Source: Burkholderia sp. BCC0322
Lineage (GTDB): Bacteria > Pseudomonadota > Gammaproteobacteria > Burkholderiales > Burkholderiaceae
Reading direction: 5' to 3'
NCBI RefSeq assembly: GCF_902833045.1
Contig: NZ_CADFDU010000004.1
Span: forward strand, 496,001-560,000
DNA length: 64,000 bases
Positions 22,501-52,332 of this stretch are shown one piece after another. The translations under genes were made by a program, and so were the position numbers. How positions within the stretch are numbered: the first letter of the stretch is position 1; every line of letters begins with the position of its first letter. The notes below the pieces were generated by a model, which did not search any database, was not told where the DNA came from, and saw nothing but the letters and a program-made list of their open reading frames with translations.

Positions 22501-25500
22501 TTCACCGCGCTGCCCGACGCGAGGCTGCCGCCCGCGCCCAGCGCCAACGTGCTGCCGCCGTTGATCGTCGTGCCGCCCGTGTACGTGTTCGCGCCCGTCA
22601 GTGTTTGCGTGCCGGCACCGGCGAACGTCACGCCGCCGGTGCCGCCGATCGCGCCACCGAAGGTCCCGCCGCTGCCGCTCAGCGTCAGCGCGTTGGCGCC
22701 CAGGTTCACGTTCGTGCCGGCCGCACCGGTCAGCGCACCGATCGTCTGCGCGCCCGATGCGCCGCCCAGGTTGAACGTCGCACCCGCGCCGGCCAGATTC
22801 ACCGCGCCGCTCGCCGCGAGGCTGCCGCCCGCACCCAGCGCGAGCGTGCTCCCGCCGTTGATCGTCGTGCCGCCCGTGTACGTGTTCGCGCCCGTCAGCG
22901 TTTGCGTGCCCGTACCGGCCAGCGTCAGGCCGCCGGCGCCGCCGATCGTCCCGCCGAACGTGCTAGCGCCGTTGCCGCTCAGCGTCAGCGCGTTGGTGCC
23001 CAGGTTCACGTTCGTTCCGGTCGCGCCGGTCAGCGCGCCGATCGTCTGCGCGCCCGATGCGCCGCTCAGGTTGAACGTCGCACCCGCGCCGGCCAGATTC
23101 ACCGCACTGCCCGACGCGAGGCTGCCGCCCGCACCCAGCGCCAACGTGCTGCCGCCGTTGATCGTCGTGCCGCCCGTGTACGTGTTCGCGCCCGTCAGTG
23201 TTTGCGTGCCGGCACCGGCGAACGTCACGCCGCCGGTGCCGCCGATCGCGCCACCGAAGGTCCCGCCGCTGCCGCTCAGCGTCAGCGCGTTGGCGCCCAG
23301 GTTCACGTTCGTGCCGGCCGCACCGGTCAGCGCACCGATCGTCTGCGCGCCCGATGCGCCGCCCAGGTTGAACGTCGCGCCCGCGCCTGCCAGATTCACC
23401 GCGCCGCTCGCTGCGAGGCTGCCGCCCGCGCCGAGCGCGAGCGTGCTCCCGCCGTTGATCGTCGTGCCGCCGGTGTAGGTGTTCGCGCCCGTCAGCGTTT
23501 GCGTGCCCGTACCGGCCAGCGTCACACTACCGGTGCCGCCGATCGCGCCGCCGAACGTGCCGCTGCCGCTGCCGTTCAGCGTCAGCGCATTCGCGCCGAG
23601 ATCGACGTTCGTGCCCGCCGCGCCCGACAGCGTACCGATCGTCTGCGCGCCCGATGCGCCGCTCAGGTTGAACGTCGCGCCCGCGCCGGCCAGATTCACC
23701 GCGCTGCCCGACGCGAGGCTGCCGCCCGCGCCCAGCGCGAGCGTGCTGCCACCGTTGATCGTCGTGCCGCCGGTGTAGGTGTTCGCACCCGTCAGCGTTT
23801 GCGTGCCGGCACCGGCGAACGTCACGCCGCCGGTGCCGCCGATCACGCCGCCGAAGGTGCCGCTGGCCGTGCCGCCGAGCGTCAGCCCGTTGCTGCCGAG
23901 GTTCACGTTCGTCCCGGCCGCGCCCGACAGCGCGCCGATCGTCTGCGCGCCCGATGCGCCGCTCACGTCGAATGCCGCCCCCGTGCCCGCGAGATTCACC
24001 GCGCCCGTCGACGCGAGGCTGCCGCCCGCACCCAGCGCGAGCGTGCTGCCGCCGTTGATTGTCGTGCCGCCTGTGTACGTGTTCGTACCCGTCAGCGTTT
24101 GCGTGCCCGTACCGGCCAGCGTCACACTACCGGTGCCGCCGATCGCGCCGCCGAACGTATGATTACCGCCGCCGCTCAACGTCAGTCCGTTGCCGCCCAG
24201 GTTCACGTTCGTACCGGCCGCGCCCGACAGCGCGCCGATCGTCTGCGCGCCCGATGCGCCGCTCAGGTTGAACGTCGCACCCGCGCCGGCGAGATTCACC
24301 GTGCCGCTCGCTGCAAGGCTGCCGCCCGCACCCAGCGCGAGCGTGCTCCCGCCGTTGATCGTCGTGCCGCCCGTGTACGTGTTCGCGCCCGTCAGCGTTT
24401 GCGTGCCCGTGCCCGCCAGCGTCAGGCCGCCCGTGCCGCCGATCGCGCCGCCGAAGGTGCCGCTGGCAGTCCCGCTCAGCGTCAGCCCGTTGCCGCCGAG
24501 GCTCACGTTCGTGCCGGCGACGCCGCTCAGCGCGCCGATCGTCTGCGTACCCGTTGCACCGCTCAGGTCGAGCGCCGCACCCGCGCCGGCCAGGTTCATC
24601 GCGCCGGTCGTCGCAAAGCTGCCGCCCGCGCCGAGCGCCAACGTGCCGGCGTTGATCGTCGTGCCGCCGGTGTAGGTGTTCGCGCCGGTCAGCGTGGTGG
24701 TCGCCGCGCCGTTCTTCACGAGGCTGCCCGCGCCGGCGATCGGGCCGCTCAACCCGAGCGCGTTGCTGCCGCCCACCGTGAGCGCCGCGCCCGTGCCGAG
24801 ATTGACCGCGTTGCCGACCGTCAGGCTCGCGTTCGTATCCAGCGTCGCGGCACCGCCGACGTTCAGCGCGCCGGTGCCGAGTGCCGAGCCGTTGCCGAGC
24901 ACGAGGCCGCCGCTGTTCAGGTTCGTGCCGCCGGTATAGGTATTCGCACCGTTCAGCGTCTGCGTGCCGGTGCCGGCCAGCGTCAGGCTGCCCGTGCCGC
25001 CGATCAGGCCGCTGAACGTGCCGCTGGCAGTCCCGCCCAGCGTCAGTGCGTTACCGCCAAGGTTGAGGTTCGTTCCCGCGACACCCGACAGCGCGCCGAA
25101 CGACTGCGCGCCCGTCGCGCCGCTCAGGTCGAGCGCCGCGCCCGCGCCGGCCAGGTTCACCGCGCCGGTCGTCGCGAAGCTGCCGCCCGTGCCGAGCGCG
25201 AGCGTGCCGCTGTTGATCGTCGTGGTGCCCGAGTACGTGTTCGCGCCGGTCAGCGTGGTGGTCGCCGCGCCGTTCTTCACGAGGTTGCCCGCGCCGGAGA
25301 TCCCACCGCTCAGCGCGAGGGCGTTGCTGCCGCCGAGCGTCAGCGTCGAGCCGGTACCGGCGAGATTGACCGCGTTGGCGACCGTCACGTTCGTATTCGT
25401 ATCGAGTGTCGCCGCGCCGCCGACGGTCAGCGCGCCGGTGCCGAGCGACGCGTTGTTGCCGAGCACGACGCTGCCGCTGTTCAGGTTCGTGCCGCCCGAG

Positions 25501-40836: not shown

Positions 40837-42366
40837 ATGACCCAGCCCGTTACCCATGATGTCCTGATTGCCGGCGCCGGCCCTGTCGGCCTCTTTCTCG
40901 CGTGCGAGTTGCGCCTTGCCGGCCTGTCGGTGCTGGTGGTCGAGCAGGCCGGCGATCCGGCCTCTCCGCTGAAGCGGCTGCCGTTCGGCATGCGCGGCTT
41001 GTCGGCGCCCACCCTCGAAGCGTTCTATCGTCGTGGCCTGCTCGACGACATCACGATGCCGCCCGGTACATTCGACACCGCGCACTGGATGAAGCAATCG
41101 CGCCGCCCGGGCGGCCATTTCGCCGGCATCCCGTTCTTCCATGACCGCATCGATACATCCCGATGGCCGTACCGCCTGCCCGGCCCGGCCGACACGCCCA
41201 TGCCGACCGATCTCGAACGCGTCGAAACCGCGTTGGCCGCCCGCGCGAACGCGACGGGCGTCGAGATCCGACGCGGCATCCGCGTCGAGGGCTTCGACCA
41301 GTCGGACGACGACGATGCGGTCACGCTGCACGCAAGCGGCAACGCGTGGCGCGGACGCTGGCTCGTCGGCTGCGACGGCGGCCGCAGCACGGTCCGCAAG
41401 GCCGGCGGCTTCACGTTCGCCGGCACCGATCCCGAATTCACCGGCTACACGATCGAGGTCGAACTCGCCGATCCCGGCGCGCTGCAGCCCGGCCGTCACT
41501 ACACCGCCACCGGCATGTATACGTACACGCCGCCCGGGACCATCGCGATGGTCGAATTCGACGGCGGCGCGTTCCACCGGCGCGGGCCGGTCCTGCTCGA
41601 TCATGCGCAGGCGGTGTTGCGCCGCGTGTCCGGCACCGGCGTCACGCTGACGGCGCTGCGGCTCGCCACCACGTGGACGGACCGCGCGCACCAGGCGAGC
41701 ACCTATCGCAACGGCCGCGTGCTGCTCGCGGGCGACGCCGCGCACATCCACTCGCCGCTCGGCGGCCAGGGGCTCAACCTTGGGATCGGCGACGCGATGA
41801 ATCTCGGCTGGAAGCTGGCCGCCACGATTCGCGGCGACGCGCCGGCCGGCCTGCTCGACAGCTATACGGACGAGCGGCATCCGGTGGGTGCCAGCGTACT
41901 CGACTGGTCGCGCGCGCAGGTCGCGCTGATGCGGCCGGCCCGGAGTTCGCGCGCGCTCGAGGCGATCGTCCGCGATCTGGTCGACACGCGCGACGGCGCG
42001 ACTTACTTCGCCGAGCGTGTATGGGGGATGTCCGTTGCGTACGATCTCGGCGGCGGCCATCCGCTCGTGGGGCGCAGCGTTCCCGACTTCGAACTGGTCG
42101 ACGGAACCCGGCTCGGCGAACACGTCACGCACGGCAAAGGTGTGCTGCTGGACTTCGATGGCGGAGGGCCGTTTCAGGCGCTCGCCAATCGCTGGCGCGA
42201 CCGGATCGCCTATCTCGCCGGCGATGCGAAAGACCGGTTGGGATTGCGCGCCGTGCTCGTGCGGCCCGACGGTGTCGTCGCGTGGGCCGGTGACGAAGCT
42301 GCAAACGCCGACGAAGCCGCGCACGCTGCAACGCGATGGTTCGGCAAGCCCTGCGCCACGCGTTGA
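40837..42366 (+). CDS. Class A FAD-dependent aromatic monooxygenase
   Basis: The protein has 509 residues. The dinucleotide-binding motif is GAGPVGLFLACELRLAG (about 13-29), followed by the NADPH/FAD motif WLVGCDGGRSTVRKAGG (about 174-190) and RVLLAGDAAHIHSPLGGQGLNLGIGDA (about 291-317). A C-terminal thioredoxin-like extension (FELVDGTRLGEHV) is typical of the PgaE/Rox group, which hydroxylates polyketides, rifampicin or phenols. The enzyme uses NAD(P)H and O2 in the cytoplasm. It is under the divergent TetR repressor, suggesting detoxification of an inducing aromatic compound. The desaturase gene follows after 91 bases on the same strand. Confidence 0.9.
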   Translation: MTQPVTHDVLIAGAGPVGLFLACELRLAGLSVLVVEQAGDPASPLKRLPFGMRGLSAPTLEAFYRRGLLDDITMPPGTFDTAHWMKQSRRPGGHFAGIPFFHDRIDTSRWPYRLPGPADTPMPTDLERVETALAARANATGVEIRRGIRVEGFDQSDDDDAVTLHASGNAWRGRWLVGCDGGRSTVRKAGGFTFAGTDPEFTGYTIEVELADPGALQPGRHYTATGMYTYTPPGTIAMVEFDGGAFHRRGPVLLDHAQAVLRRVSGTGVTLTALRLATTWTDRAHQASTYRNGRVLLAGDAAHIHSPLGGQGLNLGIGDAMNLGWKLAATIRGDAPAGLLDSYTDERHPVGASVLDWSRAQVALMRPARSSRALEAIVRDLVDTRDGATYFAERVWGMSVAYDLGGGHPLVGRSVPDFELVDGTRLGEHVTHGKGVLLDFDGGGPFQALANRWRDRIAYLAGDAKDRLGLRAVLVRPDGVVAWAGDEAANADEAAHAATRWFGKPCATR

Positions 42367-42457
42367 ATGCGGCCGCTCGTCACCTGGGGAATCCGGTGTA
42401 TATTGCCGACCGATACGCCTGCATGCGCGCCGTCGCCGGTGCGCCCGACCTCATCGA

Positions 42458-43411
42458 ATGCCCACGCCATCCGCCCTGCCGACCCCTGCCGAACTGAACC
42501 GCACGCTGCCGTTCGCAGCCGGCGCGCGGCCGTGGCGGCTCGTGCGCTATGCGTGCATCGACTGGCTCGGCATCCTGCTGTGCTGGGCCGCGATCCGCTT
42601 CGTGCCGAATCCGTTCGTCCATGTCGCAGCCGTGTTGCTGATCGCGGGCCGGCTGCAGGCATTCGGCGTGATCCTGCACGATGCCTGCCATCTCCCGATG
42701 CGGCGCATGACGCTGCCGCTGGCGCTCGTCGAAGCGCTCGCCGGCTGGACGATCGGTTCGTCGATCGCCGCGATGCGCTATCACCACCTGCGTCATCACC
42801 GTGCGGTCGGCACCGCCGAGGATCCGTACCTGCACCGGCTGGCCGCGCGCGGCGGCTGGGTGCAGCGCGTGATGATGCTGCGCGGCGCGCTGCTGCCGGT
42901 CTGGTGGCCGCTGCGCGCGCTGATGGCGCCGCTTGCGCTCGCGTGGCCCGCGTTCCGGCCGTGGTATGCGCGCGGCTTCATGCAGGACCGCTCGCGCCAG
43001 GATCTGCGCCGTCACCCTGAAGTCATCGCATGCGCGCGCGCCGACCTGCCGCATTGTGCGGGCTATCTGCTCGCGATTGCGGCCGTCGTGCACTGGGATC
43101 TGCCGTTCTTCACTTACTACGGACTGCCGTGGATCGTCGGCGGCATCATGAACGCGAACCGCGTGCTGCTCGAACACCAGCACGTCGAGATCGACGAACG
43201 CGCGCCGGAATCGATCTGGCGGATGACACGCACGATGACGTTCGGCTGGATCGGCAAGCTGGTGCTGTATCCGCGCAACATCGGCTATCACCAGGTGCAT
43301 CACGCGTATCCGGCGCTCGCGCTCGAACATCTGCCGGCCGTGCACCGCTACCTGACGGACGGCGCCGCATTCGCGCCGCCCGCACCCGGCCAGGCCGGCT
43401 CCACACGCTAG
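42458..43411 (+). CDS. Membrane fatty acid desaturase/hydroxylase, di-iron
   Basis: The protein has 317 residues and several hydrophobic segments. The three histidine boxes of the membrane di-iron desaturase family are HDACH (74-78), HHLRHH (109-114) and HQVHH (278-282). These bind two irons that activate O2 to introduce a double bond or hydroxyl into an acyl chain at the inner membrane; electron donors are a ferredoxin or cytochrome b5-type reductase not encoded nearby. It lies 91 bases after the monooxygenase gene and is convergent with the Rieske gene across 21 bases, opening the lipid-modification block. Confidence 0.88.
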   Translation: MPTPSALPTPAELNRTLPFAAGARPWRLVRYACIDWLGILLCWAAIRFVPNPFVHVAAVLLIAGRLQAFGVILHDACHLPMRRMTLPLALVEALAGWTIGSSIAAMRYHHLRHHRAVGTAEDPYLHRLAARGGWVQRVMMLRGALLPVWWPLRALMAPLALAWPAFRPWYARGFMQDRSRQDLRRHPEVIACARADLPHCAGYLLAIAAVVHWDLPFFTYYGLPWIVGGIMNANRVLLEHQHVEIDERAPESIWRMTRTMTFGWIGKLVLYPRNIGYHQVHHAYPALALEHLPAVHRYLTDGAAFAPPAPGQAGSTR

Positions 43412-43432
43412 CCGCCCTGCGTCGCGCGGCGC

Positions 43433-44581
43433 CTACAGCTCGAAGCGCATCACCTTTTCGCCGCACTGCGCGGCCGGCAGCGGCTCGTCGCGCTTCACCG
43501 CATCGAGCAGCCGGTCGATCGCGACATGCACGATGTCGGCGCGCACGTTATGCGGACGGAAGCCCGGCGCGTTGTCGAGGCCCTGCCGGTGCGCGCGCAT
43601 GATCCGCACATCCTGCTGGATCACGAGATGCGTGTACAGGTTCAGCAGCGGACGCAGCGCGCGCAACATCCAGCGCGGCAGCCGGAAGCGATACGCGATG
43701 TACGTGTAGACGCGCGAGCGGCGCGCATCGATCGGCGTGATCTGGCTGACGATCAGGAAACCGGAACGTTCGCCCCACAGATAGTCGCAGCGCGTCACGT
43801 TCGGCGCGATGAAGCGGTCGATGTGCGCGAGCGGCACGCGATCGGGGTTCGTGAGCCAGTCGAGACAGAAGCCGATCTTGTCGTCGCCGTCGTGATACGT
43901 GACGGCGACGCTGTCCGGAGTCGTCGCGACCGTCGCTTCCATCGCCTGGCCACGGCTGCTGCGGAAGATCCCGTCGTGCACGAATACCGTATGCGGCACG
44001 TCCATGAAGTTCTGCGCGAGCATCGCGATGTCGCCGTCGAACGTGTTCACCATGAAGTACGACTGCCACGGCGCGACGTCGCAAAACGGCATCCGGAAAA
44101 TCGCGCGCGCCGACGGATCGCCCGTGCCGAGATACACCCACACGAGCCCGTCGAGCAACCGCACGGGCAGCGTGCGCTGCCGGAACGGATAGCGGCCGGG
44201 CGTGCCGGTCGCCTGCGTGCCGTCGATGCTCGGCACGTGGACGACCTGACCTTCGCCGTCGTAGCGCCAGCCGTGATACGGGCACACGAGCGTGTCGCGG
44301 TAGACCTTGCCGGCCGATAGCCGCGTGCCGCGATGCACGCACTGGTCGATCAGCGCGGCGACGCGGCCGTCGCGTTGCCGGAACAGCACGATGCCGGTAT
44401 CGAGGATCCGCACGCCGAGCGGCTTGTCACGCGGGAGTTCGCGTTCGGTGCAGGCGACGAACCATTGCTCGTGCAGGCCGTCGGCCGGCGGTGCAGGCTC
44501 GCGCGAGCCCGCCGCATCGTGCGACGGGCAATCCTGCCCGCATCCGCGTGGTTCGATCATGTCGTTCATCGCGTCATTCAT
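43433..44581 (-). CDS. Rieske-type aromatic-ring-hydroxylating oxygenase, alpha subunit
   Basis: The protein has 382 residues. The Rieske [2Fe-2S] motif has Cys81-x-His83 (CVHRG) and Cys100-x-x-His103 (CPYHGW). The mononuclear iron site follows: Asp194 and His197 in NFMDVPHTVFVH, with His202 six residues on. The enzyme would add O2 to a substrate in the cytoplasm; no ferredoxin or beta subunit is encoded here, so it may work with host reductases as single-component Rieske oxygenases do. The gene overlaps the GH3 gene by eight bases, so it is translationally coupled. Substrate unknown; a modified lipid or amide is inferred from context. Confidence 0.9.
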   Translation of the reverse strand: MNDAMNDMIEPRGCGQDCPSHDAAGSREPAPPADGLHEQWFVACTERELPRDKPLGVRILDTGIVLFRQRDGRVAALIDQCVHRGTRLSAGKVYRDTLVCPYHGWRYDGEGQVVHVPSIDGTQATGTPGRYPFRQRTLPVRLLDGLVWVYLGTGDPSARAIFRMPFCDVAPWQSYFMVNTFDGDIAMLAQNFMDVPHTVFVHDGIFRSSRGQAMEATVATTPDSVAVTYHDGDDKIGFCLDWLTNPDRVPLAHIDRFIAPNVTRCDYLWGERSGFLIVSQITPIDARRSRVYTYIAYRFRLPRWMLRALRPLLNLYTHLVIQQDVRIMRAHRQGLDNAPGFRPHNVRADIVHVAIDRLLDAVKRDEPLPAAQCGEKVMRFEL

Positions 44582-46172
44582 TCGTCATCGCCAGCAGCGC
44601 ATCGGCCACCGGCAGCCGCGTCACGAGTGCGCACGGCTTCACGTCGCCCGCACGGATGCCGGCCCGTTCGGCCGCCTGTTGCAGCAGGTCGCCGAGCCGC
44701 TCCGGCGAGCGGCCCAGCCGTCGTACGCGCAGCGTGCCGAGCTGGCCGAGGCGGCGTGCGTGCGCATAGTGGAACGCCTGCACCAGTCCGGTCTCGACGG
44801 CTGCACACATGGCGCCGGCCGCGTCGTCGCCGATCTCGCCGGCGACGCACAGCACGTAATGCGGCAGCCCTTCTTTCGCGACACACGGCACGATGCACGC
44901 GCCGACTTCGCCATGCTGCCCGCGCGCGCGATTCAGCGCATCAGCCGCCATCCGTTCGTCGAGCTTCTCGCCGACGAGATCGGCGCTCGCCGCCGCGCGC
45001 CCGACGAACGCAATGCGCGGCGTGCGCGCGGTCATGCCGACCACGCGCACGCGATCGCCGAGTGCATAGCGATACAGGCCACCGCCGGTAGTCAGCAGCA
45101 CCTGCGCCTCGTCGCCGGGTCGCAGCCCTTCGACGTCGCACACGCTGCCGTCGTCGCGCACGAACTCAAGGTAGTGGCTGCCGATCGCTAGCGGGCAACC
45201 GTCACCGGCGCCGAACGGAATGCTCGCGACGCCTTCCGTCGCGAACAGCCCCTTCGGCAGCCATTGCACCTGCGGAAACCGCACGCGCAACGCGTCGGCG
45301 TAATGCTTGCTCGGGCCGTCCAGCCAGCAGCTCACGGCGGCCAGGCGCGGCCACAGCGCACGGCAGTCGCCATCCCCGATCGCACCGCGCAGCGCCGCGC
45401 GGCGGTCGGCCGGCAACGACGCCTCGACCCATGCGAGATCGCATGCGCTGCCCGCATCGTCGCGGTCGAACAGCGGGCGCAGCACGCTCGTCAGGAAGGT
45501 CGGGCTCCATACGCTGATGAACGCGAGCGCTTCGTCCGCGACGAGCGCGCGCAGCGTCTCGCGCCGCCACGTCGCCGCGTTGCCGGTCAGCGGCGGCACG
45601 AGCAGCGTCGACGCGAGCGCGGCCGCGCTGCTGTCGCCGAGGTAGTCGAGATCGCTCGCCGAGCCGACCGGAATCCCGTTGGGCGCAACACCCGGCGCCT
45701 GCAGCGGCGGCGACATCGACCAGTACGCACGCCCCTCGCAGAGCGCCGGACAAGCGCGATACATGTCGGCCAGCCATACGATCATCGCGGCCTGCAGTTC
45801 GCGCAGGAACGCGGGCGTATAAGGAATCCGCTTCTGGTGCGCGGTACTGCCGCTGGTCCGTTCGAGGAACACCGGGCGCTCGGCGGTCAGCACCGGTTCC
45901 GTTTCGTGCGACACGCGATCGAGCCACGGCAGGAAATCGGCGGCCGCCTGCACGGGCACGCGCTCACGGAACTGCGCGGGGCCATCGATCCGGTCGAAGC
46001 CGAACCGGCGGCCGAACGCCGTATCGCGGTTCGCGGCGAGCAGCGCCATGAGCCGCCGCGCCTGCGCATCGCCCGGCGCTTCGAGGCCGGCCTGCCAGCG
46101 ATCGAGGTCCGGCCGCGCGGCGCGCGCGAACGTGCGCCATGCGTCGAACGGGCTGCGCGCTGGAGCGTCCAT
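44574..46172 (-). CDS. GH3-family acyl-adenylating amide synthetase
   Basis: The protein has 532 residues and the GH3 auxin-responsive promoter family fold. The ATP-binding motif is ERTSGSTAHQKRIPYT (about 104-119), and the Tyr-containing motif TGGGLYRYALGDRVRVVG marks the second ATP motif. In plants GH3 enzymes make acyl-AMP and conjugate it to an amino acid; bacterial members are rare and few have known substrates. The gene begins one base inside the desaturase stop (TGATG) and overlaps the Rieske gene by eight bases, so all three are coupled. It probably joins the desaturated acid to an amine. Confidence 0.85.
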   Translation of the reverse strand: MDAPARSPFDAWRTFARAARPDLDRWQAGLEAPGDAQARRLMALLAANRDTAFGRRFGFDRIDGPAQFRERVPVQAAADFLPWLDRVSHETEPVLTAERPVFLERTSGSTAHQKRIPYTPAFLRELQAAMIVWLADMYRACPALCEGRAYWSMSPPLQAPGVAPNGIPVGSASDLDYLGDSSAAALASTLLVPPLTGNAATWRRETLRALVADEALAFISVWSPTFLTSVLRPLFDRDDAGSACDLAWVEASLPADRRAALRGAIGDGDCRALWPRLAAVSCWLDGPSKHYADALRVRFPQVQWLPKGLFATEGVASIPFGAGDGCPLAIGSHYLEFVRDDGSVCDVEGLRPGDEAQVLLTTGGGLYRYALGDRVRVVGMTARTPRIAFVGRAAASADLVGEKLDERMAADALNRARGQHGEVGACIVPCVAKEGLPHYVLCVAGEIGDDAAGAMCAAVETGLVQAFHYAHARRLGQLGTLRVRRLGRSPERLGDLLQQAAERAGIRAGDVKPCALVTRLPVADALLAMTNE

Positions 46173-47110
46173 CAGAAATAGGTCTTGTCGAGTTGCGCGA
46201 GATCGTCGGGCAGCCGGCGCGGCGGCGCGAAGATCGTGAGCCAGCCGTACCACAGCGGCCGCGTCTCGCGCAGGTCCGACACCGCGTGCATGTCCTGCCA
46301 GCGCAGCGCGGGGCGGCGATGATGCGTGAGGTTGTAGTTGAAGTTCAGCAACAGCCAGCGCACCGGCGTCGGCGCGCGCATGTTGTACGTGCCTTCGACG
46401 ACGTCGAGCGGCGTGCGCATGTGGTACACCCACTGCAGCGACGACCACGAGAACGCGAACGCGACATACGCGACCAGCACCGCCGACACCGACCAGTCGA
46501 GCAGCCAGCCGGCCAGCAGCCATGCACCGACTGCGGCGAGCGCCTCGTAGCGGATGCGCCGGAAATCGGCCGTCGTGAATTCCTTGAACGCGGCCGCGTA
46601 GGTGTTGTCGTCGCCGCGCGCGGCGAGCCGCTGCATCGTTCGGCCGGGCACCAGTGCGAGCACGAAGCTGCCGACAAAACCGCCGAGCCAGATGCCGCCG
46701 AGGATCGCGGCGTAGTATTCGATGCACTTGCGCAGCAGCGATTCGTCCGCGGTCGCGAAATCCGCTCGCTCGGCGCGCGTGCGGTTGCGCACGTGATGGC
46801 CGAGATGGTTCACGTGAATGAGCGTCGCGGCCGCGCCGAACATCGTGGACGCCCACCACATCATCATATAATTCGCGATCGGCCGGCGATGCCCGAACCC
46901 GTGGAAGGTTTCGTGCATCATCGAGAACACGCCCTGCATCACGAGGCAGAACGGCACGAGCGCGAGCCACTTGATCGCGCCAATGCCGGTATGCGAGAGC
47001 CAGGTGAGCATACCGGCCCACACCGCGCTCTGCAGCGCGAGCACGAGCAGGTTCGCACGGTCGTAACGTCGGGTCTGCGCGGCAGCGGCTTGCGCACTCG
47101 GTCGGTTCAT
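46172..47110 (-). CDS. Membrane fatty acid desaturase, di-iron
   Basis: The protein has 312 residues. Histidine boxes: HETFH (66-70), HLGHH (102-106) and the terminal NYNLTHHRRP (about 258-267). Membrane segments surround them. As first gene of the overlapping three-gene unit (desaturase, GH3, Rieske) it likely produces the unsaturated acyl group processed by the later enzymes. The intergenic region to the divergent ferritin-like gene is 95 bases and must hold both promoters. Regiochemistry of the double bond cannot be read from sequence. Confidence 0.87.
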   Translation of the reverse strand: MNRPSAQAAAAQTRRYDRANLLVLALQSAVWAGMLTWLSHTGIGAIKWLALVPFCLVMQGVFSMMHETFHGFGHRRPIANYMMMWWASTMFGAAATLIHVNHLGHHVRNRTRAERADFATADESLLRKCIEYYAAILGGIWLGGFVGSFVLALVPGRTMQRLAARGDDNTYAAAFKEFTTADFRRIRYEALAAVGAWLLAGWLLDWSVSAVLVAYVAFAFSWSSLQWVYHMRTPLDVVEGTYNMRAPTPVRWLLLNFNYNLTHHRRPALRWQDMHAVSDLRETRPLWYGWLTIFAPPRRLPDDLAQLDKTYF

Positions 47111-47205
47111 GGCTCGGAATGGCGGTTGTTTGCACGGGAGGATACAACAGATGCGTCAGCCGCCGGTAACGGCCCGCGCCCCTTCCCTGACGGGGCGGAA
47201 CTAGC

Positions 47206-48093
47206 ATGCGGCCGTTTCGCCGCGCGCCCGCCGACCGCACCGCGTCGCGCATGCCGACCCGCGACGTGCGCTTCGCTATCGACGCACGCATTCCGCGCTT
47301 CTGGTATCGCGGCGCGTGCCATGTCACGCGCTTCTTCGACGCGTTTTCCGTGATGTTTCCGCTCGGCGAGCGCTTCTTCATCGAAAGCGTGCGGCCGTTT
47401 CGCGACCGGGTTGGCGGCGACGCGGCGCTCGCGGCCGACGTCGATGCGTTCGTGCGGCAGGAAGCATCGCATATCCGCGTGCACCGGCTCTACAACGCGC
47501 GCCTCGCGTCGCAGCGGGTGCCGGTCGACGCGCTCGAAGCGCTGCTCGAGAAACGCCAGCGCAATGCCGCGCGGCAGGTATCGCCCGTCACGCGGCTCGC
47601 GCTGACCGCGTGCCTCGAGCACTACACGACGATCCTCGCGCACCGGCTGCTGAGCGACCCGGCGATCCTCGACGGCGCCGATCCGACGATGGCGGCCGTA
47701 TGGCGCTGGCATGCAATCGAGGAAACCGAGCACAAGACGGTCGCGTTCGACGTGTTCGAGGCGGCCATGCCGAACGCGGCGCGGCGCTATGTGGTGCGCT
47801 GCGCGGCCATGCTCGGGATCTCCGTCTACTTCGTGATCGACCTGATCTATTTCGTGCACCGCCTCGTCGCCGTCGACGGGCAGACCTGGAACCTGCGCGG
47901 CTGGCTGCAACTGCTGCGCTGGCTGTTCGTCGCGCCGGGCATCTTCACGCGCGTGATGCCGATGTGGCTGTGCTGGTTCTCGCCGCGCTTCCATCCCGAT
48001 CGCCTCGACAGCGACGCGGCGCTGCGCGCGGCACGCGCCGCGCTCGCACCGTACCTGGCCGGCGCCGAACGCGAACCGGAGTCGCACGCATGA
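47206..48093 (+). CDS. PF10118-type predicted metal-dependent hydrolase (ferritin-like)
   Basis: The protein has 295 residues. The all-helical domain carries a set of carboxylate and histidine residues spaced as in ferritin-like di-iron proteins: Glu55 (ERFFIE), Glu86 and His89 (QEASHIRVH), Glu138-His139 (CLEHYTT), and Glu172 with Glu175-His176 (HAIEETEHK). The family is annotated as a predicted metal-dependent hydrolase but activity is largely uncharacterised; an oxygenase role is equally possible. A start at 47251 (MPTRDVRFAI) would remove an Arg-rich leader. It overlaps the following hydrolase gene by four bases (ATGA). Confidence 0.82.
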   Translation: MRPFRRAPADRTASRMPTRDVRFAIDARIPRFWYRGACHVTRFFDAFSVMFPLGERFFIESVRPFRDRVGGDAALAADVDAFVRQEASHIRVHRLYNARLASQRVPVDALEALLEKRQRNAARQVSPVTRLALTACLEHYTTILAHRLLSDPAILDGADPTMAAVWRWHAIEETEHKTVAFDVFEAAMPNAARRYVVRCAAMLGISVYFVIDLIYFVHRLVAVDGQTWNLRGWLQLLRWLFVAPGIFTRVMPMWLCWFSPRFHPDRLDSDAALRAARAALAPYLAGAEREPESHA

Positions 48094-48989
48094 CACGCGC
48101 GCCGTGGACGCCCGACGGGTTCGACGACTGGCGGCGCCACTATCCGGCAACGCCGTTCGCGCGGGCCGCGGCGAACCTCGACCGAACCGATGCGTTCATC
48201 GACGGCTGGACGCGGCGCACCGCCCGCCTGCCGTTGACGACGACGGTCGTGCTCGTCGCCGGGCTGTATTCGGAATGGCTGCCCGGCTGCAATCGCGGGG
48301 CGCGGCAAACGCTCGGCGCGGCCGGCTATCGCGTGCTGACGGTGCCGGTGCGATCCGCGCGCGGCGTGTTCGATCAGGGCGCGCATATCGGGACGTACCT
48401 GCGCACGCACCTGCCGGCCGGCGGCGAATTCGTCGCGCTCGCGCACAGCAAGGGCGGCATCGACACGCTCGCCGCGCTCGTCGGCGATCCGGCGCTGGCC
48501 GCGCGTTGCGCGGGCCTCGCGCTCATGCAGCCGCCGTGCGGCCCGTCCGCGATCGTCGATACGATCTTCCGACACGGCATCGCGCCGCATGCGGCCGCGC
48601 CGTGGCCTGACCGCATCGCGCGCCGCATGCTGCGCACGCGCTGGGCCGACGCCGGCACGCGCGACATCAGCAGCCGGCGCGATCCGCGCGTCGGCGCCAT
48701 GCTTGCCGCGCTGCCGCGCGACCTCCATCTCGTGCATGGCGTGAGCTGGTCCGTCGAGGCATCCACGCGCTTCGATTCGCATCATGGGCGGCTGAACGGG
48801 CATCGTCCCGGCTGCGCGCACGACGGACAGTTCTATCTCGAACACCAGGTGATGGCCGGCATCCGGCAGGTCTGCCTGCCGCGGCTCGACCACGGCCAGC
48901 CCGTGCTCGGCGGGCTCGGCTTCGACGCCGGCCGCTTCTGGCTCGCGCTCGCCGACCTGCTGCACGTCACGCGCGCTCAGACCAGGTAG
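48090..48989 (+). CDS. Alpha/beta hydrolase
   Basis: The protein has 299 residues. After an Arg-rich N-terminus comes a hydrolase core: VVLVAGLYSEWLPG near the oxyanion strand, the nucleophile elbow FVALAHSKGGIDTL with Ser at about residue 119, and later Asp/His candidates in RFDSHHGRL and LPRLDHGQPVL. It would hydrolyse an ester, lipid or thioester in the cytoplasm. It shares an operon with the PF10118 gene and ends in a 13-bp overlap with the convergent GNAT gene. A thioesterase-like role for the lipid block is plausible. Confidence 0.82.
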   Translation: MTRAPWTPDGFDDWRRHYPATPFARAAANLDRTDAFIDGWTRRTARLPLTTTVVLVAGLYSEWLPGCNRGARQTLGAAGYRVLTVPVRSARGVFDQGAHIGTYLRTHLPAGGEFVALAHSKGGIDTLAALVGDPALAARCAGLALMQPPCGPSAIVDTIFRHGIAPHAAAPWPDRIARRMLRTRWADAGTRDISSRRDPRVGAMLAALPRDLHLVHGVSWSVEASTRFDSHHGRLNGHRPGCAHDGQFYLEHQVMAGIRQVCLPRLDHGQPVLGGLGFDAGRFWLALADLLHVTRAQTR

Positions 48990-50092
48990 ATCTCGAAGCC
49001 CGGCACGCGGCCGGCCAGCAGGCCGTCGATCGGTGCGGCCGGCTCGCCGGTCGACAGTGTATAGAGATCCATCGGCGTACGCGCCGCGTAGTAGCGCGCA
49101 AGCGCCGGCCGGAGCGGATCGCCGTCGTACAGGCACAACTGCATCAGCGCATGACTGTTGCGCACGCGCAGCCACGCGGCATCGAGCAGCGCCGCGAACA
49201 CGGACGGATCGCGGTCGCGCACCTGCAGGTGCGTCAGGTAGACGTCGCGCAACGGCTCGCCGGGCGCGGCGATACGCGGGCGGCGCAATGCGGGCGCGAC
49301 TGCATTGAATGCGGCACGGACCGCCTGCAGCGGCAACGGCAGCCGTTCGAGCACGATCCGTTTGATATCGCCGGCATCCCACGGCGCGACGCAGCCGAGC
49401 AGGTTGTCGTGCGCATCGAGCGCCAGCAGGAACGCGCCGATGCCGAACGACGGCCACGTGTCGAGCCGGCGCGCGAATTCGTCCGCGGAGAACACGCCGC
49501 CAAACGGCTGGCGGCACGATTCGGCATCGAGAAACGCGCGCAGTGCGTCCGCATGATGCGGCTGCGCCTCGACGATCCGCACGCCCGGCACGCTGCGCGG
49601 CGCCGACGACAGCCCGCGCTGCGCATAGATCGACACGTTCTCGTAGCCGTGCCAGTGCGCGAAACGCAGCCGATTCTCGCGCCGCGATCGTGCCAACGAC
49701 TGCACCGCGAGCCGGTTGTCGCGGATCATGCAGCAATACGCATGCTGCACGCCGGCGTCGGCGCGCAGCGTCGCGAAGCGTTCGCGCACCGAGTCGGTCC
49801 ACTCGCGCGACAGCCGCCGGTCGGGCATCAGCCGCAGGTCGCCGAGATAGGCGACCGGCTGCGCGCGTTCGCCGAGATAGCCGTCGCGCACGACGAGGCT
49901 CGCGAGCCCCTTCAGCGACGCGCGCTCATCCTCCGCGAGCCAGACCTCGTGATGCGGCGCGTGGCAGCGATGCAGCGCGAAGTAGTCGGGCGCGCGATCG
50001 AAGCGCAGCGGCAGGCTGCCCTGCATCGCATGGCGGGACTGGAAATCGAGGATGCGCGCGTTGTCGGCCGGATGCGCGAGTCGGATCCGCAT
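48977..50092 (-). CDS. GNAT-fold acyltransferase, two-domain
   Basis: The protein has 371 residues and appears to hold two GNAT-like modules. In the first, VAYLGDLRLMPDRRLSREWTDSVRERFATL has the R-x-x-x-x-W pattern of the CoA loop; the second (about 190-370) has ADEFARRLDTWPSFGIGAFLLALD and RDVYLTHLQVRDRDPSVFAALL. The fold transfers acyl groups from CoA or ACP to amines. The preceding gene encodes a related protein, and eight bases separate them, so they are one unit. An N-acyltransferase step in the lipid pathway is inferred. Confidence 0.75.
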   Translation of the reverse strand: MRIRLAHPADNARILDFQSRHAMQGSLPLRFDRAPDYFALHRCHAPHHEVWLAEDERASLKGLASLVVRDGYLGERAQPVAYLGDLRLMPDRRLSREWTDSVRERFATLRADAGVQHAYCCMIRDNRLAVQSLARSRRENRLRFAHWHGYENVSIYAQRGLSSAPRSVPGVRIVEAQPHHADALRAFLDAESCRQPFGGVFSADEFARRLDTWPSFGIGAFLLALDAHDNLLGCVAPWDAGDIKRIVLERLPLPLQAVRAAFNAVAPALRRPRIAAPGEPLRDVYLTHLQVRDRDPSVFAALLDAAWLRVRNSHALMQLCLYDGDPLRPALARYYAARTPMDLYTLSTGEPAAPIDGLLAGRVPGFEIYLV

Positions 50093-50099
50093 GCGCGGC

Positions 50100-50810
50100 T
50101 CACCTGCCGTCGAACAGCCGGCGCGCGAGCGGCCGCAGGTTCGACGCCGACAGTTCGCACAGGCACACGAGCTCGTCGCCCTGCGCATAGCCGGGGTTGC
50201 GTGCGAGGAAATAGTCGACGTCGGCCAGCCGTCGGTGCGCGGCCGGCACCTCCGCGAGCGCGGGCGTGAGCCGGCCCTGCGGCGTGTCGAACGACAGCAG
50301 GCCGGTAGCGGAATCGTACGCGTGCCCGTAGCGGCTCGCGGCCAGGTAATCCATCAGGTCCTGCGTGGCCGGTGCGGTCAGGTTGTCGGCACGCGGCGCG
50401 TAGTCGCGCGCGAACGCGCGCAGGTAGCGATAGGTGCGATGCCCCTTGCAGATCAGGAACCAGTACAGCGGCACGGCGGGCGCCTGCCGCCACACGTCGC
50501 CCGCGTGGCGGATCCACGCGAACGCGAGATGCTGCGTGCCCCAATGCGCGGGATCGATGATCGTATCGCCGGAAAAGATCACGCGGATCGACGCGCCGCG
50601 CCAGCGTGTCTCGTACTGCTTGAGCGTCGAGAAGCCCTGGATCGCGCCGCCGCCGTCGCGCAGCACGATGCAGTGTGTCTTGTCGCCGAGGTCGCGGTCG
50701 AACTGCGCACGAACCGTGTCGCAATAGGACGCCGCATACAACGAGAACATCCGGTCGATGTCGTCCGGGCCCAGGGCCGTTCGTTCGACGGCGGTGGCAC
50801 GCAACTCCAT
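50100..50810 (-). CDS. GNAT-like acyltransferase
   Basis: The protein has 236 residues. AGGAGG seven bases before the ATG at 50810 sets the start. The body resembles an acyl-CoA N-acyltransferase: IDRMFSLYAASYCDTVRAQFDRDLGDKTHCIVLRD, GAIQGFSTLKQY and a strand-helix with IIDPAHWGTQHLAFAWIRHAG. Members of this fold acylate amines, including amino acids and phospholipid headgroups. It is co-transcribed with the two-domain GNAT and divergent from the PAP2-desaturase fusion. Substrate unknown. Confidence 0.72.
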   Translation of the reverse strand: MELRATAVERTALGPDDIDRMFSLYAASYCDTVRAQFDRDLGDKTHCIVLRDGGGAIQGFSTLKQYETRWRGASIRVIFSGDTIIDPAHWGTQHLAFAWIRHAGDVWRQAPAVPLYWFLICKGHRTYRYLRAFARDYAPRADNLTAPATQDLMDYLAASRYGHAYDSATGLLSFDTPQGRLTPALAEVPAAHRRLADVDYFLARNPGYAQGDELVCLCELSASNLRPLARRLFDGR

Positions 50811-50871
50811 CGGCTCCTCCTGCAAGACTGAACAGCTTGCTATGATAGCCCGTCACCCGCCCGCTCCCGCC

Positions 50872-52332
50872 ATGTCCCACGCCGTTTTCCGCCAGGATGC
50901 GAACGACGCGCCGATTGCCCGGCCATGGCTGCTGCTCGCCGCCTATCTCGTCGTGACGGGTGCGTTCTACGCATTCGTCACGCACCTGCCGCTCGGGCCG
51001 GTCACGCTCATTCCGGCGAGCGCGCTCGATCGCGCGGTTCCGCTGCTGCCCGGCACCGTACCGCTCTACCTCAGCTACCTGCTCGCGATGCCCGCGCTCG
51101 TCTGGCTCGGGCGCGGCCGCGCATGGCTGCTGCCGGCGTTCTTCGCCGGCGCGCTCGCGGCCGGTGTTTGCCTCGTGTGCCATCTGCTGCATCCGACCGC
51201 CGTCGCATGGCCGCCCGCTCATGACGGCTGGATCGCATGGCTGCAGCGAATCGATGCGCCGCTTGCCGCATCGCCGAGCGGGCACGTCGCGCTGCCGGTC
51301 GCGATCGCGATCGTGCTGCTGGCGCTCCGGCAACGCTCAGCCGTGCTGTTCGCCGCGTGGAGCGCGCTGCTGATGGTGACGGTACTGACCACCGGCCAGC
51401 ATCGCGCCGCCGATGTCGCATGGGGCAGCACGACCGGTATCGCGGCCGGCACGTTCACGCTCGCGTTGCTGCGCGTCAAGGTCGACCTGCGCACGGTGGC
51501 GGCCGCACTGCTCGAATGGGCGTGCATCGTCGTTGCGATCCGCGTGGCCGTCGCGCTCGGCGCGTGGTACCTGTATGCGCTTGCGGTGCTCGTCGTCGCG
51601 ACGCGGCAGCATGCGCTGTTCATCCTGTATCACGACGCGACCCACTATCACCTCACGCGCCGTCGCGGTTTCAACGACTTCCTGATCAACGTCGCAATCG
51701 GCGTGCCGGGGCTCGTCCCCGTCGAGTTCTACCGGCCGCTGCATCTCGCGCATCACCGGCATCTCGGCACCGCGCAGGATCCGGAGCGCCGGTTTCTCTA
51801 TCACGGCCAGCCGTGGCGGTTCCGGCCGCTCGACGCGTGGCCGCTCGCGCGGCAGTTGCTCGGCGATCTGTTCGTGCTGAACATGGTGCGCAACATGGCG
51901 GCATTTCGGCGCGCGGGCGGGCAGAACACGCGGCTCGGCCTGCCGTTCCAGGCGGCCGCGGCCGTATGGGCGGTGATCGTCGCGCTGCTCGTGTGGGCCT
52001 GTTCCGCGCGAACGATCCTGCTGGTCGCGGCGCTGTGGTTCGTGCCGCTGCTCACGCTGTCGGTGCTGCTGCAGAAGATCCGCAGCATGGCCGAGCACAG
52101 CGGCGGCCCGCAGGCCACGCCCGGCTGGGCCGACTGGACGTATTCGTGGCGCACGGGCTGGATCGGCCGCGTGTTCGTGTGGCCATATCACATCAACCTG
52201 CATCTGCAACATCACCGGAACCCGGCCGTGCCGTGGCATGCGCTGCCCGACGCTATCGACGCACACGAGCCGCAGCTCGACGCACCGGAGCTGGCCCGGC
52301 TGCTGTGGTCGGGCATCCCGCCGAAGCCGTGA
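50872..52332 (+). CDS. PAP2-like phosphatase fused to a membrane di-iron desaturase
   Basis: The protein has 486 residues. The N-terminal domain (about 15-200) is a PAP2-like membrane lipid phosphatase or phosphotransferase: PSGH (135-138) and H177-x-x-x-D181 in TTGQHRAADVAWG are its active-site pieces, while the usual K-x6-R-P motif is not evident. The C-terminal domain (about 210-460) has the three desaturase histidine boxes HDATH (254-258), HLAHH (291-295) and HLQHH (444-448). Fusing lipid headgroup hydrolysis to acyl desaturation is unusual. A start at 50842 is possible, but TATGAT there looks like a -10 element. It is divergent from the GNAT pair. Confidence 0.85.
   Translation: MSHAVFRQDANDAPIARPWLLLAAYLVVTGAFYAFVTHLPLGPVTLIPASALDRAVPLLPGTVPLYLSYLLAMPALVWLGRGRAWLLPAFFAGALAAGVCLVCHLLHPTAVAWPPAHDGWIAWLQRIDAPLAASPSGHVALPVAIAIVLLALRQRSAVLFAAWSALLMVTVLTTGQHRAADVAWGSTTGIAAGTFTLALLRVKVDLRTVAAALLEWACIVVAIRVAVALGAWYLYALAVLVVATRQHALFILYHDATHYHLTRRRGFNDFLINVAIGVPGLVPVEFYRPLHLAHHRHLGTAQDPERRFLYHGQPWRFRPLDAWPLARQLLGDLFVLNMVRNMAAFRRAGGQNTRLGLPFQAAAAVWAVIVALLVWACSARTILLVAALWFVPLLTLSVLLQKIRSMAEHSGGPQATPGWADWTYSWRTGWIGRVFVWPYHINLHLQHHRNPAVPWHALPDAIDAHEPQLDAPELARLLWSGIPPKP

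What the first reader, a model, noticed from the sequence alone, without database searches (positions are those of the whole stretch)
42458..52332. Nine-gene lipid-modifying block with desaturases, GH3 synthetase, Rieske oxygenase and a PAP2-desaturase fusion
Seen: three membrane di-iron desaturase domains, one Rieske oxygenase, one GH3-fold enzyme, two GNAT-fold proteins, one PF10118 ferritin-like protein, one alpha/beta hydrolase and one fused PAP2-like domain lie together in five short units with overlaps of 1, 4, 8 and 13 bases. Known: GH3 enzymes adenylate acids and form amides; GNATs transfer acyl groups; desaturases act on acyl chains; PAP2 enzymes act on lipid phosphates. Inference: the block makes an unsaturated, oxidised fatty amide or amino-lipid. 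It contains no ACP, PKS, NRPS or FAAL, unlike polyyne or lipopeptide clusters. I know of no described pathway with this set.
Basis: partly seen in the sequence, partly recalled or inferred. Interest (0 to 1): 0.82.

Follow-up and report, generated by a model that had tools for sequence, protein, structure and literature searches.

The report
Nine-gene acyl-amide biosynthesis cassette, product unknown
A compact set of nine Burkholderia genes is inherited as one unit and belongs to a wider, apparently undescribed family of bacterial pathways that seem to build and oxidise a small acyl-amide molecule without the usual peptide or polyketide assembly lines.

Summary
Nine genes lie at 42,458-52,332 in five strand runs with the stated overlaps. 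The block is one unit. All nine genes recur in order in 9 of 65 Burkholderia genomes; six others carry an eight-gene version (57-72% identical) at another place, and Robbsia carries eight. In 8 of 8 examined genomes that lack it at this site the flanks adjoin; 3 of the 8 keep a decayed end of the last gene, so it was lost there.

Distant clusters suggest the core: a single-GNAT protein, a GH3 synthetase and a tandem-GNAT protein. Around it the oxidising enzymes change (Rieske and di-iron enzymes, B12 radical SAMs, P450). A PAP2 protein recurs, and two clusters carry efflux-pump genes.

Most likely this is a PKS- and NRPS-free pathway for an oxidised acyl-amide specialised metabolite. "Lipid-modifying" is only partly supported: membrane di-iron enzymes also act on amino acids, and the GH3 fails the model of the lipid enzyme OlsH. 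A membrane aminolipid remains the main rival. I found no described pathway with this set in the library searched. The product is unknown.

The parts
42458..43411 (+). des1: membrane di-iron desaturase/hydroxylase, 317 aa; present in the 9 close Burkholderia carriers and Robbsia, not found next to the eight-gene version
   Evidence: PF00487 E 5.9e-31; His boxes HDACH, HLRHH, HQVHH; presence table
43433..44581 (-). Rieske non-haem iron oxygenase, 382 aa
   Evidence: PF00355 E 2.2e-25; CxH..CxxH and D-x2-H-x4-H (DVPHTVFVH) kept; nearest solved relatives DdmC 5.8e-25 and SxtDIOX/SxtT 5.7e-17/1.3e-16
44574..46172 (-). GH3-type acyl-acid amido synthetase, 532 aa
   Evidence: PF03321 E 1.9e-30; profile hits plant GH3.12 (4EPM) E 4.7e-31; motifs TSGST..K, ATEG, GLYRYxLGD
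46172..47110 (-). des2: membrane di-iron desaturase, 312 aa; relatives recur in several distant clusters
   Evidence: PF00487 E 2.4e-26; relatives in L037, L038, L039, L042 and L046, L049, L050
47251..48093 (+). PF10118 ferritin-like metalloprotein, 280 aa (a start at 47206 is also possible); not detected in Robbsia or in the distant clusters examined
   Evidence: PF10118 E 1.8e-78, weak AurF match 2.5e-4; presence
48090..48989 (+). alpha/beta hydrolase, 299 aa; not detected in the distant clusters examined
   Evidence: No Pfam match; profile hits carboxylesterase 5D8M E 9.9e-7; HSKGG invariant in 8 of 8
48977..50092 (-). GNAT1: probably tandem GNAT-fold acyltransferase, 371 aa; part of the core trio
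   Evidence: AlphaFold model (poor) and structural matches; homologues weakly match Acetyltransf_9
50100..50810 (-). GNAT2: single GNAT-fold acyltransferase, 236 aa; part of the core trio, directly beside GH3 in distant clusters
50842..52332 (+). PAP2-like domain fused to a membrane di-iron desaturase domain, 496 aa (start uncertain: 50842 or 50872)
   Evidence: PF00487 E 1.7e-31, PF01569 E 2.7e-4 below cut-off; PSGH and HxxxD conserved; stand-alone PAP2 in sister clusters
42356..52327 (.). Presence/absence cassette: the stretch missing from the tightest comparable empty site (L054)
   Evidence: In L054 window 42355 and 52328 lie 19 bases apart; in L056 window 42345 and 52294 lie 53 bases apart; six other empty sites also lack window 39.9-42.4 kb

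Best explanation
The nine genes are one accessory biosynthetic cassette. Its core (GNAT2, GH3, GNAT1) builds an acyl-amide scaffold: the GH3 enzyme adenylates a carboxylic acid and couples it to an amine, and the GNAT proteins acylate the same or a second amine from acyl-CoA or acyl-ACP. The Rieske oxygenase, three membrane di-iron enzymes and the PF10118 metalloprotein then hydroxylate or desaturate the scaffold, the PAP2 domain removes or transfers a phosphate carried on it, and the hydrolase trims, acylates or releases it. The end product is probably a secreted specialised metabolite rather than a bulk membrane lipid. Shown: gene content, folds, catalytic motifs, co-inheritance, a recurring trio and changing tailoring sets. 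Inferred: every substrate, the order of steps, the product and its export.
For: Co-inheritance: nine genes without stops in 9 of 65 Burkholderia genomes; eight genes in 6 more and in Robbsia. Presence/absence cassette: 8 of 8 examined sites without it. Purifying selection on all nine genes. Core trio: a GNAT2 profile search hit 5 genomes besides G001 among 398 sampled; 5 of 5 have GH3 beside it, 4 of 5 also the tandem GNAT, but two of the five (L049, L050) are 99% identical over the cluster, so they count as one. Of 15 GH3-hit genomes besides G001 among 369 sampled, 9 were fetched with wider flanks: GNAT2 in 6 of 9, tandem GNAT in 6 of 9. GH3 motifs intact. Changing tailoring sets: Rieske plus an UnbU/UnbV-like fusion plus desaturases, with radical SAM and P450 alongside (L037); two B12 radical SAMs plus Rieske plus desaturase (L042, L049/L050); five radical SAMs plus one desaturase (Citrobacter plasmid). 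A PAP2 protein recurs in L037, L041, L042, L046, L049 and L050, and a SurE gene (a phosphatase family; recalled) in A. baumannii. HlyD, MFS and OEP pump genes beside the core in A. baumannii, HlyD and MFS in L052.
Against: No transporter lies in the Burkholderia block itself, so export is inferred from two relatives. No substrate is known for any of the nine proteins. The GNAT1 model is poor (pLDDT 53.5). The trio is not universal among GH3 loci: L041 has GH3 and the tandem GNAT but no GNAT2; L051 has GNAT2 and GH3 but no tandem GNAT; L044 and L045 hold a weaker GH3 with neither. The hydrolase and PF10118 genes were not detected in the distant clusters, so what is said of them rests on Burkholderia and, for the hydrolase, Robbsia alone. 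GH3 could make an ester or thioester instead of an amide. GH3 with an alpha/beta hydrolase is also the make-up of the OlsH/OlsI lipid pathway. A split into five strand runs is unusual for a single pathway.
Confidence: 0.52

Rival explanations
1. The block makes or remodels a membrane aminolipid, in the manner of OlsH/OlsI (a GH3 enzyme couples a fatty acid to an amino acid, an alpha/beta hydrolase adds a second acyl chain), with desaturases and the Rieske enzyme modifying the acyl chains in place.
For: GH3-like OlsH forms N-acyl ornithine and the alpha/beta hydrolase OlsI O-acylates it in planctomycetes (PMC12493201, abstract, passages and section 8); this block also has a GH3 and an alpha/beta hydrolase. 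Three membrane desaturase domains and a PAP2-like domain are typical of lipid enzymes. The Rieske protein's best NCBIfam match is a sterol monooxygenase, far below cut-off (79.8 against 600 bits).
Against: The GH3 fails the OlsH model (37.5 against 620 bits); whether the hydrolase resembles OlsI was not tested. The block is absent from most Burkholderia genomes (50 of 65 have neither version). Two relatives of the core sit with efflux-pump genes, and the hydrolase was not detected in distant clusters.
Confidence: 0.28
2. A catabolic or detoxification block: Rieske oxygenase, di-iron enzymes, hydrolase and acetyltransferases degrade or acylate an environmental compound.
For: The nearest solved Rieske relative is dicamba O-demethylase DdmC (E 5.8e-25). 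The block lies beside a FAD monooxygenase and TetR gene.
Against: The FAD monooxygenase and TetR region also occurs at L054 and L056 without the block, and several carriers lack it, so it is not part of the block. A GH3 synthetase, a GNAT pair and a PAP2 protein look biosynthetic or conjugating. Sister clusters carry B12 radical SAMs and, in one, P450.
Confidence: 0.12
3. A plant-hormone mimic pathway: desaturation and oxidation of a fatty acid followed by GH3 conjugation to an amino acid, as in plant jasmonoyl-isoleucine.
For: Plant GH3 proteins (GH3.12, GH3.6, JAR1 and others) are the solved relatives found. Robbsia andropogonis, a carrier, is a plant pathogen (recalled).
Against: No lipoxygenase- or allene oxide cyclase-like domain was listed for the nine proteins. 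The core trio also occurs in an A. baumannii record from a human sample and on a plasmid from a gull cloaca isolate. GH3 enzymes differ widely in substrate (recalled).
Confidence: 0.05

Closest known systems
OlsH/OlsI ornithine-lipid pathway of planctomycetes (PMC12493201)
   Same: A bacterial GH3-like enzyme that forms an amide from a fatty acid and an amine, with an alpha/beta hydrolase (the O-acyltransferase OlsI) in the same operon
   Different: The GH3 here is far below the OlsH model score; the block here has two GNATs, a Rieske enzyme, three di-iron domains and a PAP2 domain, while the passages give a three-gene operon OlsH-OlsG-OlsI
afc cluster for AFC-BC11 in the Burkholderia cepacia complex (PMC12186527)
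   Same: Burkholderia cluster for an N-acyl product with several desaturase-like enzymes and no classical modular NRPS; AfcC, membrane-embedded and with a modelled di-iron centre, acts on a lysine residue
   Different: afc has 25 genes with a carrier protein, adenylation domain, fatty acyl-AMP ligase and KAS III-like enzymes; no such domain was listed for the nine proteins here, and GH3, Rieske and PAP2 do not occur in the paper's main text
Guanitoxin GntB and the Rieske oxygenases SxtT and SxtDIOX (saxitoxin-type; recalled)
   Same: Same enzyme superfamilies: GntB is the best NCBIfam match of two di-iron proteins; SxtDIOX and SxtT come after DdmC among solved Rieske relatives
   Different: GntB scores far below cut-off; no amidinotransferase, PLP-enzyme or PKS domain was listed for the block
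Plant GH3 acyl-acid amido synthetases (JAR1, GH3.12)
   Same: Nucleotide-binding motifs and near full-length profile match
   Different: Distant relatives; bacterial gene context of GNATs and oxidases

Membership tests
GH3 acyl-acid amido synthetases | GH3 domain above the Pfam cut-off | tested here: met
   PF03321 106.6 bits against 23.6; PF23571 47.1 against 23.6; PF23572 20.5, just below 23.6
GH3 acyl-acid amido synthetases | Three nucleotide-binding motifs (SSGTS...K, YGSSE-like, GLYRYxLGD) | tested here: met
   TSGSTAHQK, ATEG and GLYRYALGD; T106, G108, K114, T312, E313, G365, R368, Y369 and D373 invariant in 14 of 14; reference motifs from PMC12493201 passages. The second motif keeps only its end
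GH3 acyl-acid amido synthetases | ATP-dependent amide formation | not testable with these tools
   Needs an enzyme assay
OlsH lyso-ornithine lipid synthetase | NCBIfam OlsH model score at or above cut-off | tested here: not met
   37.5 bits against 620, residues 32-128 only
OlsH lyso-ornithine lipid synthetase | OlsI alpha/beta-hydrolase O-acyltransferase partner in the operon | tested here: inconclusive
   OlsI is an alpha/beta hydrolase; such a protein is in the block but on the other strand, and no OlsI sequence was compared
afc (AFC-BC11) lipopeptide cluster | Carrier protein, adenylation domain, FAAL, KAS III-like enzyme | tested here: not met
   None listed for the nine proteins in Pfam at E<=1
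Membrane di-iron FA_desaturase superfamily (three proteins) | PF00487 above cut-off and three His boxes | tested here: met
   108.6, 93.5 and 110.3 bits against 29.7; His boxes (in des2 the third box is NLTHH)
GntB arginine hydroxylase | NCBIfam model score at or above cut-off | tested here: not met
   35.5 (des1) and 84.3 (PAP2-des) bits against 380; no match for des2
GNAT acyltransferases: GNAT2 | GNAT fold | tested here: met
GNAT acyltransferases: GNAT1 | GNAT fold, two copies | tested here: inconclusive
PAP2 phosphatase superfamily | Pfam PAP2 above cut-off | tested here: not met
   21.1 against 27.2 bits
PAP2 phosphatase superfamily | Catalytic motifs PSGH and SRx5Hx3D (recalled) | tested here: inconclusive
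   PSGH (P[SC][GL]H in the nine) and HxxxD kept; the SR pair is not kept here or in the stand-alone sister proteins
Rieske oxygenases | CxH-CxxH cluster site and D-x2-H-x4-H iron site | tested here: met
   Aligned; Pfam Rieske 88.8 bits

The most novel reading that the evidence does not exclude
GNAT-GH3-GNAT is the core of a so far undescribed class of biosynthetic pathways, independent of PKS, NRPS and carrier proteins, found in Burkholderia, Robbsia, Citrobacter, Acinetobacter and other Pseudomonadota, in which O2-dependent (Rieske, di-iron, P450) and B12 radical-SAM tailoring sets replace one another around the same amide-forming scaffold.
Probability: 0.5. Interest if true: 0.78.

Novelty: new variant of a known kind. 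Interest (0 to 1): 0.62.

Why it matters
If right, a whole class of small-molecule pathways lies outside the enzyme signatures usually used to find them (PKS, NRPS, terpene, RiPP; what the usual finders detect is recalled, not tested). The GNAT-GH3-GNAT trio gives a simple search handle. The same scaffold surrounded by oxygen-dependent enzymes in Burkholderia and mainly by radical-SAM enzymes on a Citrobacter plasmid would be a natural experiment in exchanging one oxidation chemistry for the other. It would also extend bacterial GH3 enzymes, in the one characterised case I read of tied to ornithine lipids, to specialised metabolism.

Tried and rejected
Considered and dropped: (1) the ornithine-lipid enzyme OlsH as a direct match (37.5 against 620 bits); its wider logic (GH3 plus alpha/beta hydrolase) is kept as rival 1. 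(2) The afc/AFC-BC11 cluster: different gene set. (3) Upstream FAD monooxygenase and TetR as part of the block: the region occurs without the block at L054 and L056 and is missing beside several carriers. (4) A recent mobile insertion: no long repeat at the two ends (longest exact match 13 bases, direct or inverted), GC 69-71% like the rest of the window, no tRNA in the window, and 3 of 8 sites without the block keep a decayed 3' end of the PAP2-desaturase gene, which points to loss. (5) An enediyne link through the UnbU/UnbV-like fusion in L037-L039: Pfam domains of L037 only, two paper searches gave nothing useful, and no such gene lies in the Burkholderia block; kept as a loose observation. 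(6) An E. coli carrier: no megablast match to the Citrobacter cluster in 5,426 E. coli genomes (needs roughly 85% identity). (7) Solved relatives by sequence of GNAT2 (E<=1), the PAP2-desaturase protein (E<=0.5) and PF10118 (E<=0.1): none. Paper searches; the absence of a described pathway rests on these and on an open-licence library only. Not done: comparison with an AfcC, OlsI or OlsH sequence, a GH3 tree, searches outside Pseudomonadota (no handle), wider fetches of the 6 remaining GH3-hit genomes (G102, G144, G233, G248, G306, G434).


Full report
WHAT IS THERE. The window is 68.5% GC and its closest relatives are Burkholderia. The nine genes are at the stated place: des1 42458-43411 (+), Rieske 43433-44581 (-), GH3 44574-46172 (-), des2 46172-47110 (-), PF10118 47251-48093 (+), alpha/beta hydrolase 48090-48989 (+), GNAT1 48977-50092 (-), GNAT2 50100-50810 (-), PAP2-desaturase 50842-52332 (+). 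Overlaps of 1, 8, 4 and 13 bases are as described. Pfam confirms three FA_desaturase domains, Rieske, GH3 and PF10118 clearly. The PAP2 match is below cut-off but its PSGH and HxxxD motifs align with stand-alone PAP2 proteins of sister clusters. The hydrolase and both GNATs match no Pfam family. A profile hit to carboxylesterase 5D8M supports the hydrolase. Structure models support the GNATs: the smaller is a single GNAT; the larger is most likely a tandem GNAT, but its model is of low confidence (pLDDT 53.5) and the tandem structures listed fit only at rmsd 11-13.

ONE UNIT. In 65 Burkholderia genomes the GH3 profile finds 9 close copies (1110 bits or more), 6 copies at 684-707 bits and 2 weak matches at 84 bits. 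All 9 close carriers have all nine genes at 81-99% identity without stops. All 6 others have eight genes (no des1) at 57-72%. Robbsia andropogonis has eight (no PF10118) at 64-74%; its Rieske match includes one stop before the conserved domain, where the gene probably starts later. The eight-gene version lies at another place: RNase T2, the right-hand flank of the block, is on another contig or more than 600 kb away in 6 of 6. dN/dS against L001 is about 0.06-0.25 for the nine genes. In the family Burkholderiaceae, 12 of 299 sampled genomes have GNAT2, and all 12 handles were already known from the genus search or as Robbsia.

EMPTY SITES. RNase T2 is found in 54 of 65 genomes, among them the 9 close carriers. 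I fetched 8 of the 45 others, mostly ones with high RNase T2 identity. In 8 of 8 the flanks adjoin: in L054 window 42355 and 52328 lie 19 bases apart, in L056 42345 and 52294 lie 53 apart, and in six others window 39.9-40.0 kb lies 31-132 bases from window 52.2-52.4 kb, so these also lack the FAD monooxygenase and TetR genes. The two tight sites bound the cassette to the nine genes. L055, L056 and L061 keep the last 67, 39 and 109 bases of the PAP2-desaturase gene in decayed form; the other five keep at most a few bases. The simplest reading is an old accessory cassette that was lost several times.

DISTANT RELATIVES SHOW THE CORE. A GH3 profile search of 369 genomes of the class hit 15 besides G001. 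I fetched 9 of those 15 with wider flanks. GNAT2 is present in 6 of 9 (L037, L038, L039, L040, L042, L043) and the tandem GNAT in 6 of 9 (L037, L038, L039, L041, L042, L043); L040 ends soon after GH3; L044 and L045, with weaker GH3 proteins, have neither. A GNAT2 profile search of 398 genomes of the phylum hit 5 besides G001; 5 of 5 have GH3 beside it and 4 of 5 the tandem GNAT; two of the five, L049 and L050, are 99.2% identical over 10.3 kb. In the plasmid collection (72,556 records) GNAT2 matched 12 records. Three were opened: a Citrobacter portucalensis plasmid and an A. baumannii record hold the trio; the Azospirillum record has a GNAT2-like gene without GH3 in the 20.7 kb fetched. The second A. 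baumannii record, not opened, has GH3 directly after GNAT2.

TAILORING SETS CHANGE. L037 and L038 hold Rieske, an unknown 220-aa protein, GNAT2, GH3, tandem GNAT, a fusion of an RnfD-like membrane domain with FG-GAP/UnbV repeats, a desaturase, an unknown 320-aa protein, a SnoaL-like protein and des2 (Pfam run on L037); in L037 a converging PAP2, radical-SAM and P450 set follows. L042, L049 and L050 hold GNAT2, GH3, two radical SAMs (B12-binding in L042) and tandem GNAT, with Rieske, the 320-aa protein, SnoaL-like, des2 and PAP2 genes. The Citrobacter plasmid has GNAT2, GH3, tandem GNAT, five radical SAMs, PAP2, a SnoaL-like protein and one desaturase. In A. baumannii the trio lies among HlyD, MFS, outer-membrane efflux and SurE genes; in L052 it is followed by HlyD and MFS genes.

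HOW IT PROBABLY WORKS. Shown: folds, motifs, linkage. The GH3 keeps the nucleotide-binding motifs, so acid adenylation followed by amide formation is the best guess for the scaffold. The GNATs would add acyl groups from CoA or ACP. The Rieske protein keeps both iron sites, and the di-iron enzymes keep their His boxes, so they should be active oxidases. A recurring PAP2 protein, with SurE in A. baumannii, suggests a phosphorylated intermediate. Export is suggested by pump genes in two relatives. All substrates are unknown. The word 'lipid' should be held loosely: the membrane di-iron enzyme AfcC acts on lysine in AFC-BC11 (PMC12186527, passages and section 8; not compared in sequence with the enzymes here) and, by its NCBIfam name, GntB acts on arginine. 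Against this, the OlsH pathway pairs a GH3 with an alpha/beta hydrolase O-acyltransferase, as this block might.

KNOWN OR NEW. The nearest described bacterial GH3 pathway I found is OlsH/OlsI (PMC12493201, abstract, passages and section 8); the GH3 here fails that model. That paper reports GH3-like proteins across bacterial phyla and calls for study of their functions. Searches of the open-licence library for GH3 with Rieske, desaturase, GNAT, radical SAM, Acinetobacter or Burkholderia terms found no description of this set (listings only). I rate it a new variant of a known kind (a specialised-metabolite gene cluster) with an unusual core.

LIMITS. Genomes were sampled, one per species and mostly unnamed. 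Relations outside Pseudomonadota were not searched. The structure models used five closely related sequences each. No product is known.

Noticed in passing
L055, L056, L061: Decayed 3' ends of the PAP2-desaturase gene at sites that lack the block: loss of an ancestral cassette rather than recent gain.
   Followed up: yes
L037:5315-8074, L038:12337-15072, L039:7017-9728: A protein of about 900 aa in sister operons joins an RnfD/NQR2-like membrane domain to FG-GAP and ASPIC/UnbV repeats (Pfam on L037; homologues by blastp), a pair recalled from enediyne clusters as UnbU and UnbV; its role is unknown.
   Followed up: partly
L046 (Citrobacter portucalensis plasmid NZ_CP134684.1, 51417-63512): A trio cluster with five radical SAM genes on a mobilizable IncF-type plasmid; no near match in 5,426 E. 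coli genomes or in other records of the plasmid collection.
   Followed up: partly
L047 (A. baumannii NZ_CP064203.1 1501884-1522558): GNAT2-GH3-tandem GNAT among HlyD, MFS, outer-membrane efflux and SurE genes; the record is labelled a plasmid but is 4 Mb, so probably a chromosome.
   Followed up: partly
L005 12.8-16.1 kb; L005 1740-2534; L034 1169-1963: Apparent transposase genes (judged from the translations) lie between Rieske and des1 in B. paludis; L005 and L034 also carry a second PF10118 gene, about 63% identical to that of the block, beside RNase T2.
   Followed up: no
window 19527-28112 (-): A 2861-aa open frame with 18 passenger-associated-transport repeats (PATR), an autotransporter-like surface protein.
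   Followed up: no
L028 961-7565: VgrG-, Tle3- and Tla3-type VI secretion genes next to the eight-gene cluster; a similar run is in L029, L030, L031 and L032 but not in the fetched part of L027.
   Followed up: partly
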